From: an uncultured Bacteroides sp.
Lineage (GTDB): Bacteria > Bacteroidota > Bacteroidia > Bacteroidales > Bacteroidaceae
Length of the DNA: 64,000 nucleotides
Direction of reading: 5' to 3'
Assembly (NCBI GenBank): GCA_945965395.1
Contig: CAMFND010000150.1
Span: 16,083 to 80,082 of the forward strand
In this document: in pieces, positions 43,737-52,283 of the stretch
Numbering within the stretch: the stretch's first letter is position 1
Layout of the letters: every line of letters starts with the position of its first letter
Made by a program: the position numbers and the translations under genes
The notes under the pieces: generated by a model
The model's input: only the letters and a program-made list of their open reading frames with translations
Database searches by the model: none
What the model was told of the DNA's origin: nothing

Positions 43737-45830
43737 TTATTTCAATCCGCGAGTCTTCAGCAACGCATCCAAACCGGGTTCTGCCCCACGGAAGGTTACA
43801 TACAGTTTCATCGGGTCGTCTGAACCACCTTTTTCCAGAATGTTCTTACGGAAAGAAGTTGCGGTAGCCTGGTCGAACAAGCCATGTTCCTTAAACGCTT
43901 CAAAGGCATCTGTATCCAGACGTTCAGCCCAGATATAGCTATAATAACCAGCTGCATAACCACCCATAATGTGGTTGAAGTAAGTAGAACGATAACGAGG
44001 CGCAATCTGCGGAATCAGCCCTAATTTATCCATCAGCTGTTTTTCAAACTGAAGTACGTCGAATCCTTCCATCGTAGTCAGACAGTGCATTTCCATATCC
44101 AAAATGGCAGCAGCCAACAGTTCTGTAGTCATAAAACCCTGGTTGAACAATGCCTGATTTTCAATCTTGGCAATCAGAGAATCAGGAATAGCCTCACGAG
44201 TCTGGTAATGCTTGGCATACATTTTCAGCACTTCGGGTTCTACCGCCCAATGTTCCATAATCTGTGAAGGAAGTTCCACAAAATCCTGAGCCACAGACGT
44301 ACCAGACACACCTTTATATTTACACTGAGTCAGCAATCCGTGCAATGCATGTCCGAACTCATGATACATGGTGCGTGCCTCATCAATTGTCAGCAAGGAA
44401 GGAAGGTCACCAGCCGGTTTGGTAAAGCTGGCCACATTATAAATCAACGGACGAACCCCTTCCTGCTGTTCACGGAAGTTACTCATCCAAGCACCGCTCC
44501 GTTTGCTGGCACGAGGCATGTAGTCACTATAGAACACGCCCAACAGTGAACCGTCTGCATCCTTCACAATGTAAGTCTTCACATCCTTATTATATACAGA
44601 AATAGAATCACAAGGAGTCAAGGTAATGCCATACAGCTTGTTGACTACCGTACACAGTCCATCGTGCACATCTTCCTGACTGAAATAAGGCTTGATGGCA
44701 TCCTCATTCAAATCATATTTTTTCTGGCGAAGCTTTTCTGCATAATACCACCAGTCCCATGCTTCCAGTTTTTCACTTTTTCCTTCACGGTCCATGATTT
44801 TCTGCAACTCAGCAGCTTCTGCTTTGGCATTCTTGATAGAATATTCCCACAAGCCATACAGCAGGTCAAGTGCATTCTTCGGGTTCTTCGCCATGTTGTC
44901 GGCCAACTGATACTCTGCGAAATTGTTGAATCCCATCAGCTGTGCCTTTTCCAGACGAAGAGCAAGCACCTTTTTCAGCACTTCCTTGTTGTCATTGGCA
45001 TTGCCACGGTTACCCAGACTGGTATATGCCTGATAGATATTCTTTCTCAGTTCACGGTTCTGAGCATACTGGAGCAACGGAGTACGGCTGGATTCCTGCA
45101 AGGTAAATACCCATTTACCGTCTTTTCCGTGCGCCTTGGCTTCCTGCGCAGCTCCCGCAATGACCGCATCCGGCAGACCAGCCAAATCTTCTTTCTTATC
45201 TACCACCAGCAGATAATCGTTGTTGTCGGCCAATACATGATTACCGAACTCAATGGTCAGTGTAGAAAGCTGTTTGTTGATTTCACGCAGACGTTCCTGT
45301 TTCTGGGCATCCAGTCCTGCACCAGAGCGAACAAATTCTTTATAATATTTATCCAGCAAATAATGCTGCTCGGTGGTCAGCTGAATCTTTCCAGCCTCTT
45401 CCTGAGCATGAACGGCAGCCACTCTCTTATACAGTTCCTGATTCAGGAAAATATTATCACTATGCTCAGACAGCATCGGAGCAATCTTTGCTTCCAGCGC
45501 CATCATTTCGTCATTGGTATCAGCTTCAGTTAAGGCAAAGAACACTCCGCTCACACGAGCCAGAATCTCCCCGCTATTATCCAATGCCACAATCGTATTT
45601 TCAAAACTCGGTTCCTCCGGATTCTCTACAATGGCCTTGATTTCCTCATTCTGCTGCTTAATACCTTTCAAGAAAGCCGGTTCATAATGCTCCACCTTAA
45701 TACGGTCAAAGTCAGGTGTTCCATAAGGGGTTTCAAACTCAGACAGGAACGGATTGTCCGTGTCTGCCGCCTGCTGACCGCAGGCACATACCATACAACT
45801 CATAGCTGCTGCAAAAATTAAATTCTTCAT
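43737..45830 (-). CDS. M3-family peptidyl-dipeptidase (Dcp-like), lipoprotein
   Basis: TMYHEFGHALHGLL HEFGH zinc motif; CMVCACGQ lipobox. Confidence 0.94.
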   Translation of the reverse strand: MKNLIFAAAMSCMVCACGQQAADTDNPFLSEFETPYGTPDFDRIKVEHYEPAFLKGIKQQNEEIKAIVENPEEPSFENTIVALDNSGEILARVSGVFFALTEADTNDEMMALEAKIAPMLSEHSDNIFLNQELYKRVAAVHAQEEAGKIQLTTEQHYLLDKYYKEFVRSGAGLDAQKQERLREINKQLSTLTIEFGNHVLADNNDYLLVVDKKEDLAGLPDAVIAGAAQEAKAHGKDGKWVFTLQESSRTPLLQYAQNRELRKNIYQAYTSLGNRGNANDNKEVLKKVLALRLEKAQLMGFNNFAEYQLADNMAKNPKNALDLLYGLWEYSIKNAKAEAAELQKIMDREGKSEKLEAWDWWYYAEKLRQKKYDLNEDAIKPYFSQEDVHDGLCTVVNKLYGITLTPCDSISVYNKDVKTYIVKDADGSLLGVFYSDYMPRASKRSGAWMSNFREQQEGVRPLIYNVASFTKPAGDLPSLLTIDEARTMYHEFGHALHGLLTQCKYKGVSGTSVAQDFVELPSQIMEHWAVEPEVLKMYAKHYQTREAIPDSLIAKIENQALFNQGFMTTELLAAAILDMEMHCLTTMEGFDVLQFEKQLMDKLGLIPQIAPRYRSTYFNHIMGGYAAGYYSYIWAERLDTDAFEAFKEHGLFDQATATSFRKNILEKGGSDDPMKLYVTFRGAEPGLDALLKTRGLK

Positions 45831-45848
45831 CTTCTATTTATTATCAGG

Positions 45849-46907
45849 TTATAACTTCTCTACCAAACACCACAACGGATAGTGGTCGGATGCCGAAATG
45901 GAGTTGTCCACACGGCATTTCAATACTTTAAATCCTTTGTTCACAAATAAATGGTCAATGCGGAAATACAGAAAATTCCGGTTATACGAGAATCCCGGTC
46001 CCCAGCCGGCTTCACGATAAGCATCTGTCAATCCTTTTCCGATGGTGTGATGCGCATACGAAATAGGAGAATCATTGAAATCACCGCACACCAACAAATA
46101 CTTGCCCGACTGCCGGGAGATAGCCTGTGCCACCGAATCCGCCTGCGGTCCACGGATAGCCACGGCATCAGCCAATTTATGCAGCAGGTATTTGCTGTCC
46201 GATTTCACGTTCTGTTCTTCAGGCGATTTCAGCAATCCCTCGTACACTTCCTTATCATGCGCATCCAGCTTATTCGATTCGAGATGATTGCATATCAACG
46301 TCAGTGTATCCCCTTTTATGTTTAGACGAAGCAGAAAGCTGGCATTACTTCCACTTTCATAAGGAATCGGTTCTACCGAAAGAATCGGGAAACGTGACAA
46401 ACAGGCCATCCCATTTCCGTTAGACGCTTTCAGCAACCGTCTGTAAGGATACATGGGAAAAGCCTTCCTGGTCTTTCGGGCATCCCAGTGATATTCCTGC
46501 AGGCAAACCACGTCTGCATCACTTTCCTGAATATAATGTTGCACGGGACGAGATTCATCTTCCGTATCTCCGTACATATTCATGACGTTATAGGTCAGAA
46601 ATTTCAGTACCTCCCCGTCCGTAGGTTCTTCCCCTCCTCCAAACGGAGTATACGTCGCGACTGCCCCTCCTCCAGCCAGTAAAAGCAGTAAAGGAAGGCA
46701 CATAAACTTCCATCCATGAAACAGCCCCACTACTGCAAGAACAATCAAAGCCAACAAGAAAAAGGGAAAAAACAACCCCGCACAGGCCAGCACCGGATGA
46801 GCCACCGGCGATACAAGCGGACTGTAAGCACAGCACAAAAATCCGGTCCCGACAATCAGGTTTCCTAAAATAAAGACTCCTCTAAACGTATGTTTCCAAA
46901 TACTCAT
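45849..46907 (-). CDS. Endonuclease/exonuclease/phosphatase family protein
   Basis: LTYNVMNMYGD, CLQEYHWD, VCGDFNDSPISYAH, ASDHYPLWC. Confidence 0.9.
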   Translation of the reverse strand: MSIWKHTFRGVFILGNLIVGTGFLCCAYSPLVSPVAHPVLACAGLFFPFFLLALIVLAVVGLFHGWKFMCLPLLLLLAGGGAVATYTPFGGGEEPTDGEVLKFLTYNVMNMYGDTEDESRPVQHYIQESDADVVCLQEYHWDARKTRKAFPMYPYRRLLKASNGNGMACLSRFPILSVEPIPYESGSNASFLLRLNIKGDTLTLICNHLESNKLDAHDKEVYEGLLKSPEEQNVKSDSKYLLHKLADAVAIRGPQADSVAQAISRQSGKYLLVCGDFNDSPISYAHHTIGKGLTDAYREAGWGPGFSYNRNFLYFRIDHLFVNKGFKVLKCRVDNSISASDHYPLWCLVEKL

Positions 46908-47818
46908 TTCTTACTTGCATCAAATAAGCTTTTCTTCTCGTCATCCGTCAGACTGTTATAGCCCGACTTACGCAGTTTGTCCAGAATCCGGTCAATTTCT
47001 GCCTCACGTTCCTTTTTCCGGGCATTGTATTCATAATCCGCCTGGCGTCCTCCGTAGTGCACCTTCATCTTGGGTTTACGCCTCACCGGACGTCCCAAGC
47101 CTGCAAACCAGTCGCACACCAGGTTTATCCATTTTGTGGCATCGTGGCCGCTCTGCAATCCTGCCGCAAACCACCATCCGGCCAGTGCTCCACCCAGATG
47201 TGCAATGTGCCCACCTGCATTCTCAGAAGTCATGAACAGCAAATCGAGTGCCACCATAAACAGAGCCACATATTTCAGACGCACCGTACCGATAAACAGG
47301 AACTGTACCGGATAATTCGGTTCACGTACACTTACCGCCACCACAATGGCCAACACAGAAGCCGAAGCACCCAACAAATAGGAAGAATACACGGCATCCT
47401 GAAAATAAGGAAACACATTATATGCCAGCATATAAAGCAATCCGCCGCAAATACCTCCCAGAAAATAAAGTCCACGCAAGTGCTTCGACGAGAAAAAAGC
47501 CAGAAACAGACGACCGAACCAGAACAGCCACAGCATATTAAACAAGATGTGCAGCACACCGGCATGCATGAACATGTAAGTAATCAGGGTCCAGGGCCTA
47601 CGGATAAAGACCTCCGTCCATGCCGGCAGTTCCAGATAGTTCATCCATGGTGAAGAAGGCACATTGAACAAAGTCAGAAAAATCTGCACCAGTGTCACTG
47701 CCAGAAACACCGCTACGTTCACATACACCAGACGCAGCACAATGTCTCCCTGCTGGAACTTTCTTTTCAAATCAGTAATAAATCCGTCCGCCGCCATTTT
47801 TCTTTCTCCAATAAACAA
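46904..47818 (-). CDS. Rhomboid-family intramembrane protease (start may be 47800)
   Basis: YMFMHAGVLHILFNMLWLFWFG; LLGASASVLAI; GHIAHLGGALAGW. Confidence 0.88.
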   Translation of the reverse strand: MFIGERKMAADGFITDLKRKFQQGDIVLRLVYVNVAVFLAVTLVQIFLTLFNVPSSPWMNYLELPAWTEVFIRRPWTLITYMFMHAGVLHILFNMLWLFWFGRLFLAFFSSKHLRGLYFLGGICGGLLYMLAYNVFPYFQDAVYSSYLLGASASVLAIVVAVSVREPNYPVQFLFIGTVRLKYVALFMVALDLLFMTSENAGGHIAHLGGALAGWWFAAGLQSGHDATKWINLVCDWFAGLGRPVRRKPKMKVHYGGRQADYEYNARKKEREAEIDRILDKLRKSGYNSLTDDEKKSLFDASKK

Positions 47819-48446
47819 TCAGTATCAAGCCGAACAACATACCTCCCAAGTGAGCGAAATGGGCTACTCCATCGTTGCTTCCCAATCCTAAAAGCAACTC
47901 CAGCACCGCATATCCAATCACAAAATACTTCGCCTTGATAGGCACTGGTATCGGGAATACAAACATCTGACTGTTGGGAAACAACATACCAAATGCCAGC
48001 AAAATGCCATACACCGCTCCCGAAGCACCTACGGTAGTCAGCTGGTTCAGGAACGCATCCATAGGAATGATACCCAGTCCCGTATTGACCGAATCGTAAT
48101 TAGACCATACCGCCAGATACTCCACATACTGCACCAACTCTTGAATCAGGCCGGCACCAATACCACAAATCAGGTAATACGTCAGGAAGCGTTTAGGTCC
48201 CCACACCTGTTCCAGCACCCGTCCGAACATCCATACCGCAAACATATTGAAGAAGATATGCGAGAAATTGGCATGCATGAACATGTAAGTGATAAGCTGC
48301 CCCAGGTTAAAATCCGAAGCCAGGAAAAAGTGAAGACCCAGCATATTTTCTATATCCACTCCGTATTTCCGGGCCACAAACATCCCGAAGAAACAGAGCA
48401 CATTGATAATAAGCAGGTTTTTCGTTACTGTTGGAAGATTATTCAT
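47772..48446 (-). CDS. Rhomboid-family intramembrane serine protease
   Basis: YMFMHANFSHIFFNMFAVWMFG; TVGASGAVYGILLAFG; VAHFAHLGGMLFG. Confidence 0.93.
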   Translation of the reverse strand: MNNLPTVTKNLLIINVLCFFGMFVARKYGVDIENMLGLHFFLASDFNLGQLITYMFMHANFSHIFFNMFAVWMFGRVLEQVWGPKRFLTYYLICGIGAGLIQELVQYVEYLAVWSNYDSVNTGLGIIPMDAFLNQLTTVGASGAVYGILLAFGMLFPNSQMFVFPIPVPIKAKYFVIGYAVLELLLGLGSNDGVAHFAHLGGMLFGLILIVYWRKKNGGGRIYY

Positions 48447-48512
48447 ATTGTTAAATCATTGATTCAGTTACAAATGTACAACATAAAATCGGGTTTGAAG
48501 GAATATGTATCC

Positions 48513-49163
48513 TTAAATTTCATTGAACGCACGCACCGAGTCACGCAGCACCAGCAAGCTTTCCGGTCCCATATTGAACAGCAGGTCAATCACACTGAGA
48601 TTAGGCAGAAAACCCAGCTTCTGGTCAAACACCTGATAATAAGGTTTGGGAAAGAATGCCTTGTCCGCCTCCCGATAATCCCGTTTGGGATGAATCAGCT
48701 CCCGGAAATCATCGGCACATTCCACCTCCGGCATGTATTCCTCGGTAGGTATCAGGCGAGGCTCCATGTCTATCTGCCGGCACACCCACTCACACAGTTC
48801 CAGGTTAAAGTCAAACAGAAATTCATATTTCTGCTCAAAGAACCGATGAAACTCATCCGCATAGTAATCAAAAAAAGGACTATGCTTGTAAGCGGCTACA
48901 AACGCATTCCAGTGCACATGCCGCCAGTTGCCATGGTCTGAAATACGTACATCCTTCATCACACACTTCAGGTCGTCACTCTTTTCCGTCGGAATGGTCA
49001 GTGCCAACGGCCCGTCGGCCGATGCAATCACACACCGGTTGCGGTAAGTCTGCTTCATATAATGGTCATAACGCTCCACATGCACCGAAGGATAAGCAAA
49101 AAGTTTGGTATAATATTCTACGGGAGCCAGATAGGCCGACCCCAAAATCACTTCATTCTTCAT
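48513..49163 (-). CDS. WbqC-family protein
   Basis: LGSAYLAPVEYYTKLFAYPSVHVERYDHYMKQTYRNRCVIASADGPLALTIP. Confidence 0.85.
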   Translation of the reverse strand: MKNEVILGSAYLAPVEYYTKLFAYPSVHVERYDHYMKQTYRNRCVIASADGPLALTIPTEKSDDLKCVMKDVRISDHGNWRHVHWNAFVAAYKHSPFFDYYADEFHRFFEQKYEFLFDFNLELCEWVCRQIDMEPRLIPTEEYMPEVECADDFRELIHPKRDYREADKAFFPKPYYQVFDQKLGFLPNLSVIDLLFNMGPESLLVLRDSVRAFNEI

Positions 49164-49179
49164 TCTTTCTTAGTTTATG

Positions 49180-50097
49180 TCATTGCACCCGCTGCCAGAA
49201 GCGCCCCTTCCGCGAAGAGTACCAGATGCGCCAGGCCTTCCCTATCAGGTGGTCCTCCGGCACGAACCCGAACAAGCGGGAATCACAAATATTCACCGGG
49301 TCATTGGAAGCCACCCAGTAATAATCCTTGCCAAACGTATAAGCCTCCACGGGCTTTCCCTTCACATACAACGTATCGTGACGAACCTCTGCAGGCTGGT
49401 GTTCATGCACCACAATCGTATTGCAGAGCAAGGTCACATTCCAGGGATACACCTTCACCGGAACACCTTTTGCCGGAATCACATACGGATGCACTTCCGT
49501 TTGGTTCTTTTCATCCAGCGGCACAAGCGGAATCCGCCCCTCCAGTTTCTGCGAAATCAAGTAATATTCATATTGGCTGAAACTCCGTATATATCCCCCG
49601 TCGGAAGTATATCCGGCCAGCGTATTTCCTTTGATGCCCAGCACCGACAGCACGGCCAGCATCAAGTCTTCTGAGGATACCGGATAAGCATACAGCGATT
49701 TGGCGTCCGGACTGAGCACCTCTCCGCCTACCCAGTTCAGGTCGGCATCCAGCATCAGCGTATCTCCCGGCGTACCGATGCAGCGGCTGATGAACAGCTC
49801 TCTCCACTCTATTCCTTTCTCCACCTGCTGGGGATGAGGGTTATTGAACAAGAGAATATCCCCCTTCTCCGCACGCGAAGATGCCAGCCGATGATAGCCG
49901 AAAAGCGAACAAAAAGGCAAACGCAGCCCGTAGCTCCACTTGTTGACCAGAATCCGTTCTCCCTGATAAAGAGAATTTTCCATCCCGGAAGAAGGAATTA
50001 CACAAGTCGTCACAAGCAGGGTCCGCACCAGCCATACGGTCAACACCGTCAGGCCGGCCGCTCTCAACCACCACCATCCGGACTTTCCTTTGTTCAT
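49180..50097 (-). CDS. Signal peptidase I-like S26 protein lacking the canonical Lys
   Basis: CVIPSSGMENSLYQGERILVNKWSYG; LFISRCIGTPGDTLML; SNDPVNICDSRLFGFVPEDHLIGKAW. Confidence 0.88.
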   Translation of the reverse strand: MNKGKSGWWWLRAAGLTVLTVWLVRTLLVTTCVIPSSGMENSLYQGERILVNKWSYGLRLPFCSLFGYHRLASSRAEKGDILLFNNPHPQQVEKGIEWRELFISRCIGTPGDTLMLDADLNWVGGEVLSPDAKSLYAYPVSSEDLMLAVLSVLGIKGNTLAGYTSDGGYIRSFSQYEYYLISQKLEGRIPLVPLDEKNQTEVHPYVIPAKGVPVKVYPWNVTLLCNTIVVHEHQPAEVRHDTLYVKGKPVEAYTFGKDYYWVASNDPVNICDSRLFGFVPEDHLIGKAWRIWYSSRKGRFWQRVQ

Positions 50098-50100
50098 AGA

Positions 50101-51531
50101 TTATTTAATGGAATCCACAAACTTAAACAGACGGTTCCAGCGAATCTTTCCGTCAAACCAGCCACGATCCTGGTTCAGCGACAGCCAGATAAAAATAGGT
50201 TTACCCACAATGTGGTCTTCCGGCACGAAGCCCCAGAAACGTGAATCGGCCGAATTATGACGGTTGTCACCCATCATCCAGTAATAATCCATCTTGAAGG
50301 TGTATTTTGTCGTTTCCTGTCCGTTGATGTAGATTTTTCCGTCTTTGACCTCCAGGCTGTTACCCTCGTAGTTCTTGATCGGACGTTCATACATGGGCAG
50401 GTTATCCAGTGTCAGGTCTATGGTAGCCCCCTTCTTCGGAATCCATATCGGACCGTAGTTATCTACTGTCCAGCCTGTCAGCTTGTTATCCGGATACAGT
50501 CCGCCCGCATCATCATCCGGCACGTTTTCAATGGAAGTTACCAAATCCTTCCGTGCCAGCAAGGCAGCCTTCGCCTTCTCAGTCAACGGCATGTTATATA
50601 CCGATTCCTCCGTATAATAAGCCATCAAATCCTCCTGGCTGATACCCAGTTCATGACATAAATCCTCCGGCAGCATGCCCTTGGTATGCACGAAATAACG
50701 ATACTGTACATTATCCGGTTCCTTGTTGGCCTTACCGTTCAGGTAAATAATCCGGTTTTTGATTTCCAGTGTCTGGCCCGGCATACCCACACAACGCTTC
50801 ACATAATTCTCTCTCCGGTCTACAGGACGGGTAATCACCTCACCATACAGCTGCGGATTTTCGTCAATATACTTGCGTCCTACCGAGTAATAATAATCAT
50901 ACACATCCCGTTGCTGCTCCAGGTTCAGGCTGGCCAGGTCAATAGGCTGCGAAAGTTGCTTGCCGATGGCATAGCTCATGCGATAGATATCTTCTGCCGG
51001 ATTGCCGGTAGCCACCGTATCCCCTGCCGGGAAGTTGAACACCACGATGTCATTCAGCTGCACCTCTCCCAGTCCGGCCACCCGTTTGTAATCCCACTTC
51101 GGCCATTCCAGATACGACTTACAGTTGAACACCGGCAGCGTATGCTGCGTCAGCGGCATGTGGAGCGGTGTCTGCGGAATACGGGCACCATAACTCATCT
51201 TGCTTACAAACAGATAGTCGCCCACCAACAGCGATTTCTCCAGCGACGAAGAAGGAATCACGTAGTTCTGAAAGAAGTACAGATTCACAAAATAGACTGC
51301 CACCAGCGCAAACACGATGGCATCCACCCAGCCCATCACCGTCAGCACGGTCTTGTTGGTCGATTTCTTCCACCATGTCCAGGGAATCTTTTTGGAAATA
51401 TATGCGTCAAAGATGAACGGAACCACTACCAGTCCCAGCCAGCTTTTCAACCAAATCAGAAAAATCAGGTAAAGCACCAGCACTATGCCGAACTTTATCC
51501 ATTGTTTACGCGATGCCTGTATCATACTCAA
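50101..51531 (-). CDS. lepB: Signal peptidase I
   Basis: YVIPSSSLEKSLLVGDYLFVSKMSYG; NYVKRCVGMPGQTLEI; MMGDNRHNSADSRFWGFVPEDHIVGKP. Confidence 0.95.
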   Translation of the reverse strand: MSMIQASRKQWIKFGIVLVLYLIFLIWLKSWLGLVVVPFIFDAYISKKIPWTWWKKSTNKTVLTVMGWVDAIVFALVAVYFVNLYFFQNYVIPSSSLEKSLLVGDYLFVSKMSYGARIPQTPLHMPLTQHTLPVFNCKSYLEWPKWDYKRVAGLGEVQLNDIVVFNFPAGDTVATGNPAEDIYRMSYAIGKQLSQPIDLASLNLEQQRDVYDYYYSVGRKYIDENPQLYGEVITRPVDRRENYVKRCVGMPGQTLEIKNRIIYLNGKANKEPDNVQYRYFVHTKGMLPEDLCHELGISQEDLMAYYTEESVYNMPLTEKAKAALLARKDLVTSIENVPDDDAGGLYPDNKLTGWTVDNYGPIWIPKKGATIDLTLDNLPMYERPIKNYEGNSLEVKDGKIYINGQETTKYTFKMDYYWMMGDNRHNSADSRFWGFVPEDHIVGKPIFIWLSLNQDRGWFDGKIRWNRLFKFVDSIK

Positions 51532-52283
51532 AACTGAAATAAATCATTCATACCTAAGAAGCCCTGGTGCGCAGCCGTATATTCCGCAGCCAGCACCGCT
51601 CCCAATGCAAACCCCTTGCGGTTCTTTGCGTCGTGTGTAATCACGATAGAATCAGCCTCCGATTCATATTTGATGGTATGAATACCCGGCACTTCCCCTT
51701 CGCGGATGGCACTCACGGGCAATTCATCCGGTGCACAGTCGGTCGTACCTGTCACCGTACCGTCGGGAGCGGTCAGTGTGCCCATCACCCATTTCTGCTT
51801 GCGATCCAGGTTTTCCAGAATCCCTTCAGCCAGCGTAATGGCCGTACCACTCGGGGCATCCAGCTTGTGCACGTGGTGAGTTTCTACCATCGACACATCG
51901 TAGTTCGGGAACTGGTTCATAATCTTTGCCAGGTACTTGTTCACCGCCGCAAAGATAGCCACACCCAAGCTGAAGTTAGACGACCAGAACAGCGTCTTAC
52001 CTTCCTCCTGGCACAGACGGCGCATCTCTTCGCCATGCTCTCCCATCCATCCGGTGCTGCCCGATACCACTTTCACCCCATTCTTGAACGCCTCCAGACA
52101 GTTGCCGTAAGCCACTGAAGGAGCCGTAAATTCAATGGCCACATCGGCCGAACGGAAAGCCTCCGAAGCAAAATCTTCCCGATTATTTATATCAATGATA
52201 CTCACAATTTCATGACCTCTGGAAAGGGCAATCTTTTCAATTTCCTTTCCCATCTTTCCATATCCAATTAATGCAATTTTCAT
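51528..52283 (-). CDS. dapB: 4-hydroxy-tetrahydrodipicolinate reductase
   Basis: MKIALIGYGKMGKEIEKIA; VETHHVHKLDAPSGTAITLAE. Confidence 0.95.
   Translation of the reverse strand: MKIALIGYGKMGKEIEKIALSRGHEIVSIIDINNREDFASEAFRSADVAIEFTAPSVAYGNCLEAFKNGVKVVSGSTGWMGEHGEEMRRLCQEEGKTLFWSSNFSLGVAIFAAVNKYLAKIMNQFPNYDVSMVETHHVHKLDAPSGTAITLAEGILENLDRKQKWVMGTLTAPDGTVTGTTDCAPDELPVSAIREGEVPGIHTIKYESEADSIVITHDAKNRKGFALGAVLAAEYTAAHQGFLGMNDLFQF

What the first reader, a model, noticed from the sequence alone, without database searches (positions are those of the whole stretch)
49180..50097. Signal peptidase I paralog with Ser in place of the catalytic Lys
Adjacent lepB has NYVKRCVGMPGQ, carrying the general-base Lys of the S26 Ser-Lys dyad. 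The 305-aa paralog reads LFISRCIGTPGD at the same place (codons ATC AGC CGC TGC), so Lys is replaced by Ser while the nucleophile motif IPSSGMENSL and the SRLFGFVPEDH box are kept. Eukaryotic Sec11-type peptidases use His instead of Lys, so S26 enzymes can change the base; Ser there is unexpected. It could be an inactive regulator of LepB or use a different base.
Basis: partly seen in the sequence, partly recalled or inferred. Interest (0 to 1): 0.6.

Follow-up and report, generated by a model that had tools for sequence, protein, structure and literature searches.

The report
Dead twin of bacterial signal peptidase
Next to its working signal peptidase gene, this Bacteroides-like gut bacterium keeps a second copy that has lost both catalytic residues yet is preserved by selection across its relatives, so it probably does something other than cutting signal peptides.

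Summary
The Ser at the catalytic-Lys position is real. Gly272 and Ser278, which pack against the Lys, are also replaced. The gene encodes a doubly dead signal peptidase I homologue, not an enzyme with a new base.

It is not strain-specific. It lies 3 bp after an intact Ser/Lys lepB, in the order dapB-lepB-lepB2-wbqC. It was found in 59 of 60 genomes of the genus and in 30 of 31 sampled genomes of the neighbouring genus g2, with Gly at the nucleophile and Ser, Asn or Gly at the base. Other Bacteroidales families carry Gln, Ala, Cys and other residues. Other Bacteroidia orders have an intact Ser/Lys copy at the same place; several other Bacteroidaceae genera have shrunken it or cleanly lost it. 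dN/dS of 0.07-0.12 and 32 family-specific constrained sites argue against a decaying duplicate.

Closest known proteins are the inactive homologues SipA (Streptococcus pyogenes) and SpsA (Staphylococcus aureus). Most likely role (inferred): a non-catalytic, membrane-anchored, peptide-binding partner of LepB. A new variant of a known kind.

The parts
49180..50097 (-). lepB2: 305-aa signal peptidase I homologue without catalytic dyad
   Evidence: Pfam PF10502 79.9 bits; alignment to E. coli signal peptidase I
49984..49986 (-). Gly38 (GGG) at the position of the catalytic Ser nucleophile
49786..49788 (-). Ser104 (AGC) at the position of the catalytic Lys base
49288..49308 (-). Degenerate box E, residues 264-270 SNDPVNI in place of GDNRHNS
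49276..49284 (-). Retained DSR (residues 272-274)
   Evidence: invariant in 60 orthologues
50101..51531 (-). lepB: intact type I signal peptidase, Ser96/Lys245/GDNRHNS, 3 bp upstream of lepB2
51528..52283 (-). dapB, first gene of the run
   Evidence: Pfam DapB_N and DapB_C
48513..49163 (-). wbqC-like gene, directly downstream; conserved neighbour
   Evidence: Pfam PF08889

Best explanation
lepB2 is a pseudopeptidase. A tandem copy of lepB between lepB and wbqC lost its Ser-Lys dyad early in Bacteroidales and was kept for a non-catalytic job. The protein stays anchored in the inner membrane by one N-terminal helix, with an S26 domain in the periplasm whose cleft framework (IPS, GMEN, the I-x-R strand of the old Lys, DSR) is conserved. 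The most likely mechanism is that it is made together with LepB and binds LepB and/or the signal-peptide region of exported proteins without cutting, acting as a substrate-holding or modulating partner of the cleavage step. Shown by sequence: dyad loss, conservation, gene position, purifying selection. Inferred: periplasmic placement, co-expression, peptide binding, partnership with LepB.
For: Four catalytic positions lost together: Ser90 to Gly, Lys145 to Ser, Gly272 to Ser, Ser278 to Ile. All 131 distinct long LepB sequences in the same alignment keep S/K and the 11 legible S26 copies elsewhere in related genomes keep S/K, so the loss is specific to this gene. Present in 59/60 genus genomes, in 30/31 genomes of genus g2 and in all sampled g1, g5 and g6 genomes at high score. 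Order dapB-lepB-lepB2-wbqC in nearly all of 80 named loci. lepB2 starts 3 bp after the lepB stop, median spacing 12 bp over 79 loci. dN/dS 0.07-0.12 against about 0.02 for lepB. 19 sites are at least 90% fixed in both families with different residues and 13 more are constrained only in lepB2, which looks like changed function rather than decay. Best PDB fold matches are type I signal peptidases, with SipA further down. Precedent: S. pyogenes SipA lost the same four positions, has no detectable peptidase activity, keeps the peptide cleft and is essential for pilus polymerisation (PMC4049620).
Against: No evidence of physical contact with LepB or of peptide binding. Several Bacteroidaceae genera have shrunk or deleted the gene while keeping lepB, so it is not an obligatory subunit. 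lepB2 has three to five times the dN/dS of lepB. In SipA a cleft mutation predicted to block binding had no effect on function (PMC4049620), so cleft conservation may be structural only.
Confidence: 0.5

Rival explanations
1. Client-specific, LepB-independent helper: like SipA, the dead copy serves as a non-enzymatic assembly factor for a particular surface structure or class of exported protein, and its place next to lepB is only a relic of tandem duplication.
For: SipA precedent (PMC4049620). Patchy loss in several Bacteroidaceae genera while lepB stays. Many newly constrained sites lie in the non-catalytic domain (residues 136-183).
Against: The position next to lepB is kept wherever the gene was found, and no pilus or other surface-structure gene lies in the conserved run.
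Confidence: 0.25
2. Decaying duplicate with little or no function, on its way to loss.
For: Shrunken copies and clean losses in other Bacteroidaceae genera; long branches of those copies; residues at the dyad positions drift among families.
Against: dN/dS 0.07-0.12 in the window's own lineage, no in-frame stop in the listed full-length copies of the genus, 43 invariant columns over 60 diverse orthologues, retention across many Phocaeicola and Bacteroides species.
Confidence: 0.12
3. Inhibitory decoy: lepB2 binds signal peptides or LepB and lowers cleavage, tuning LepB output.
For: Directly behind lepB with expected co-expression; retained cleft framework.
Against: Nothing specific points to inhibition; an inhibitor might be expected to be lost easily, but it is kept in most of two large genera.
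Confidence: 0.1
4. Active peptidase with unusual chemistry.
For: Fold and cleft framework kept; Ser36 and Ser37 lie next to Gly38 and Ser104 is common.
Against: Nucleophile position is Gly in 60/60; Ser36 becomes Phe or Tyr in some; Ser37 becomes Thr, Ala, Asp, Asn or Arg; Ser104 becomes Asn or Gly; Gly272 and Ser278 equivalents are gone. In SipA, replacing residues at the old site did not matter (PMC4049620).
Confidence: 0.03

Closest known systems
LepB, type I signal peptidase of Bacteroidota (neighbouring gene; S26A type)
   Same: Same fold and order of boxes, homologous stretch in the non-catalytic domain; profile-profile probability 100%, E 5e-44
   Different: lepB2 lacks catalytic Ser and Lys and the GDNR..S box, and lacks the long LepB-specific stretches at the N-terminus and between boxes C and D (305 against 476 aa)
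SipA of Streptococcus pyogenes (signal peptidase-like protein, PDB 4n31, PMC4049620)
   Same: Same four positions lost (Ser90, Lys145, Gly272, Ser278), signal peptidase fold, membrane anchor; appears in the structural match list (rank 18)
   Different: SipA has Asp and Gly at the dyad, sits in a pilus cluster of a Gram-positive and has a tiny non-catalytic domain; lepB2 has Gly and Ser, a large domain, and follows the housekeeping lepB
SpsA of Staphylococcus aureus (inactive paralogue of SpsB, PMC12445088)
   Same: Inactive type I signal peptidase paralogue beside an essential active enzyme, lacking two catalytic residues
   Different: Gram-positive, reported dispensable; sequence relation not tested here
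Sec11-type and SipW-type (ER-type) signal peptidases
   Same: S26 members with a changed general base (own knowledge)
   Different: They keep the Ser nucleophile and use His; lepB2 has neither a Ser nucleophile nor a Lys/His base

Membership tests
Type I signal peptidase as an active enzyme (S26A) | Peptidase S26 fold/profile | tested here: met
   Pfam PF10502 79.9 bits, cut-off 22.9; TIGR02227 77.3 bits, cut-off 47; structural matches
Type I signal peptidase as an active enzyme (S26A) | Catalytic Ser nucleophile in box B | tested here: not met
   Gly38, Gly in 60/60 orthologues
Type I signal peptidase as an active enzyme (S26A) | Catalytic Lys (or His) base in box D | tested here: not met
   Ser104; Ser, Asn or Gly in orthologues
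Type I signal peptidase as an active enzyme (S26A) | Box E GDN(R)xxS with Gly272 and Ser278 | tested here: not met
   SNDPVNI; only the following DSR is kept
Type I signal peptidase as an active enzyme (S26A) | Cleaves signal peptides | not testable with these tools
   needs an assay
Inactive signal peptidase homologue (SipA/SpsA kind) | S26 fold without a Ser-Lys dyad | tested here: met
Inactive signal peptidase homologue (SipA/SpsA kind) | Retained peptide-binding cleft | tested here: inconclusive
   Framework residues Ile34, Pro35, Ser36, Met39, Ile103 and Arg105 conserved, but the model is weak around the site (residues 267-274 below pLDDT 50)
Inactive signal peptidase homologue (SipA/SpsA kind) | Non-catalytic biological function | not testable with these tools
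   only indirect support from selection and conservation
SipA proper | Location in a pilus/sortase gene cluster | tested here: not met
   Neighbours are dapB, lepB, wbqC and two rhomboids

The most novel reading that the evidence does not exclude
Bacteroidales signal peptidase I works as a two-part complex in which LepB cuts and lepB2 is a dedicated non-catalytic subunit that presents or selects preproteins, a bacterial counterpart in organisation to the multi-subunit eukaryotic signal peptidase complex.
Probability: 0.15. Interest if true: 0.75.

Novelty: new variant of a known kind. Interest (0 to 1): 0.42.

Why it matters
The protein passes the cut-off of the TIGR02227 equivalog model 'signal peptidase I', so by that model it would be named an active peptidase although it has no dyad; counts of signal peptidases in gut Bacteroides would then be inflated. 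Bacteroidia also preserve the whole series of active tandem copy, dead but conserved copy, shrunken copy and clean loss at one genomic site, which makes a clear test case for how an essential secretion protease gains a non-catalytic relative. If lepB2 modulates LepB, it bears on how Bacteroidetes process their unusual (Q-rule) secretome.

Tried and rejected
Alternative nucleophile or base near the old site: rejected because Ser36, Ser37 and Ser104 all vary and no Lys or His is conserved in the aligned boxes; invariant His231 and Lys133 lie outside the catalytic boxes by alignment, although distances could not be measured on the model. Strain-specific variant or sequencing error: rejected. Alignment slip that would bring Ser37 to the nucleophile position: rejected because the box aligns without gaps and the same columns read S/K in all long LepB sequences and in active tandem copies. 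A further S26 gene in this genome: none found beyond the two. The LepB model was too weak to use (pLDDT 67.6, residues 75-154 below 50). The lepB2 model fits the fold, but TM-scores to the best hits are low (0.31-0.37 by query length) with high rmsd, so no geometric argument was built on it. Promoter- and terminator-like sites were no more frequent than in shuffles. Literature searches for a described inactive lepB paralogue in Bacteroidetes found none in the held open-access library; this is not proof that none exists. Complex prediction of LepB with lepB2 was not possible with the tools.

Full report
Observation. The ORF at 49180-50097 (-) encodes 305 aa and matches Peptidase_S26. Against E. 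coli signal peptidase I the first block aligns without gaps: E. coli IPSGSMMPTLLIGD lies over IPSSGMENSLYQGE. The second block aligns DYIKRAVGLPGD over LFISRCIGTPGD, so Lys145 is Ser104 as reported. In the third block GDNRDNSADSR lies over SNDPVNICDSR; Gly272 and Ser278, which pack against the Lys (PMC4049620), are Ser and Ile, while DSR is kept. Profile-profile alignment of 60 paralogues with 48 LepB proteins gives the same pairing (probability 100%, E 5e-44). Counted over these sets, the nucleophile column is Gly 60/60 against Ser 48/48, the base column is Ser 51, Asn 6, Gly 3 against Lys 48/48, and the Ser278 column is Leu, Ile, Val or Met in nearly all against Ser 48/48.

Not a local accident. 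The own assembly holds two S26 genes, this one and lepB. The paralogue was found in 59 of 60 genomes of the genus; the one without it is a 79% complete assembly. In a family-wide sample all genomes of the own genus, 30 of 31 of genus g2, and all of genera g5 and g6 have it at high score; g14 has a shorter form. Eighty loci in named genomes, mostly Phocaeicola and Bacteroides species including P. vulgatus, B. fragilis and B. xylanisolvens, show dapB, lepB (Ser/Lys), paralogue, wbqC in that order in nearly all. The paralogue starts 3 bp after the lepB stop here; the median spacing is 12 bp over 79 loci.

Wider history. In seven further Bacteroidales families the copy at the same place belongs to the same clade and has also lost the dyad, with Gln, Cys or Ala at the nucleophile and Ser, Gly or Ala at the base; one case has Ser at the nucleophile but Ser, not Lys, at the base (L151). 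In other orders of Bacteroidia the tandem copy after lepB, often before wbqC, is intact Ser/Lys in most loci fetched, and it is dead (Asp/Gln) in two genomes of one family. In other Bacteroidaceae genera the copy is shrunken (mostly 226-281 aa) or cleanly absent, with wbqC directly after lepB. On trees of the S26 proteins the dead Bacteroidales copies form one side of a branch with SH-aLRT 99 (quick search, long branches present), and at least three changes between intact and dead states are needed. The simplest reading is an old tandem pair, one main inactivation in Bacteroidales, further inactivations elsewhere, and later losses. Because the tree search was quick and some branches are very long, a single origin of all tandem copies is not established.

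Selection. Against the three closest relatives dN/dS of the paralogue is 0.07-0.12, compared with about 0.02 for lepB and 0.04-0.06 for wbqC. No listed full-length copy in the genus contains an in-frame stop. Forty-three columns are invariant in 60 diverse orthologues. Nineteen columns are at least 90% fixed in both lepB and lepB2 but with different residues, and 13 others are at least 95% fixed in lepB2 while variable in LepB; many lie in the non-catalytic domain. This pattern fits a protein kept for another function better than a decaying duplicate.

Structure. The AlphaFold2 model (60-row alignment, pLDDT 82.8) has one N-terminal helix and a mainly beta domain. [quoted passage not shown] TM-scores are low and the loop at the old box E is unreliable, so the model supports the fold only, not a cleft geometry. 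Placement of the domain in the periplasm follows from homology with LepB and is inferred.

Function. Catalysis by the known mechanism is excluded as firmly as sequence can do it. The precedent is S. pyogenes SipA, in which the same four positions changed (to Asp, Gly, Asn, Arg), no peptidase activity was detected, the cleft is preserved and the protein is essential for pilus polymerisation (PMC4049620). S. aureus SpsA is a second inactive paralogue (PMC12445088). The best explanation here is a membrane-anchored, non-catalytic partner that works with LepB at the cleavage step, by binding LepB or the exported chain. I put the inactive state at about 0.95, retention for a function in Phocaeicola/Bacteroides at about 0.85, and the LepB-partner mechanism at about 0.5. 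The repeated losses show that LepB does not need it in every relative.

Known or new. Inactive type I signal peptidase homologues are a known kind. I found no description of this one in the searched open-access library; two papers on the Bacteroidetes Q-rule discuss signal peptidase I without mentioning such a paralogue in the passages found. Differences from the known cases are the Gram-negative host, the place directly behind the housekeeping lepB, the breadth across an order, and the visible series from active to dead to lost. It also scores above the cut-off of the NCBI equivalog model for signal peptidase I, so misannotation as an active enzyme is expected.

Noticed in passing
46904-48446 (-): Two adjacent, different rhomboid-family genes follow wbqC in the same run as the signal peptidase pair, so four membrane-peptidase-family genes (two S26, two rhomboid) sit together; the rhomboid pair is next to wbqC only in part of the named genomes.
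   Followed up: partly
L253-L264: Many Phocaeicola/Bacteroides genomes carry a further ~300-aa S26 gene elsewhere, with intact Ser/Lys (11 of 11 legible), often with box E variants such as GDRGENS or GDKTRDS. The window's own genome lacks it.
   Followed up: partly
L243, L244: In another Bacteroidia lineage the S26 copy between lepB and wbqC is dead with Asp at the nucleophile and Gln at the base, echoing Asp in SipA.
   Followed up: partly
L151 (second S26 ORF, 322 aa): A Bacteroidales copy with Ser at the nucleophile column but Ser instead of Lys at the base and a broken box E (PDNRLTY); the only legible copy within the dead clade with Ser at the nucleophile.
   Followed up: no
L109: In Phocaeicola paurosaccharolyticus JCM 15092 the lepB reading frame is split into 154- and 340-codon ORFs upstream of the dead copy; this could be a frameshift or an assembly error.
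   Followed up: no
43737-52283 (-): A dense same-strand run of eight ORFs (dapB, lepB, lepB2, wbqC, two rhomboids, an endonuclease/exonuclease/phosphatase-like ORF, an M3-type peptidase-like ORF) with short gaps or overlaps at most junctions; the last two names are by eye, not by a family search.
   Followed up: no
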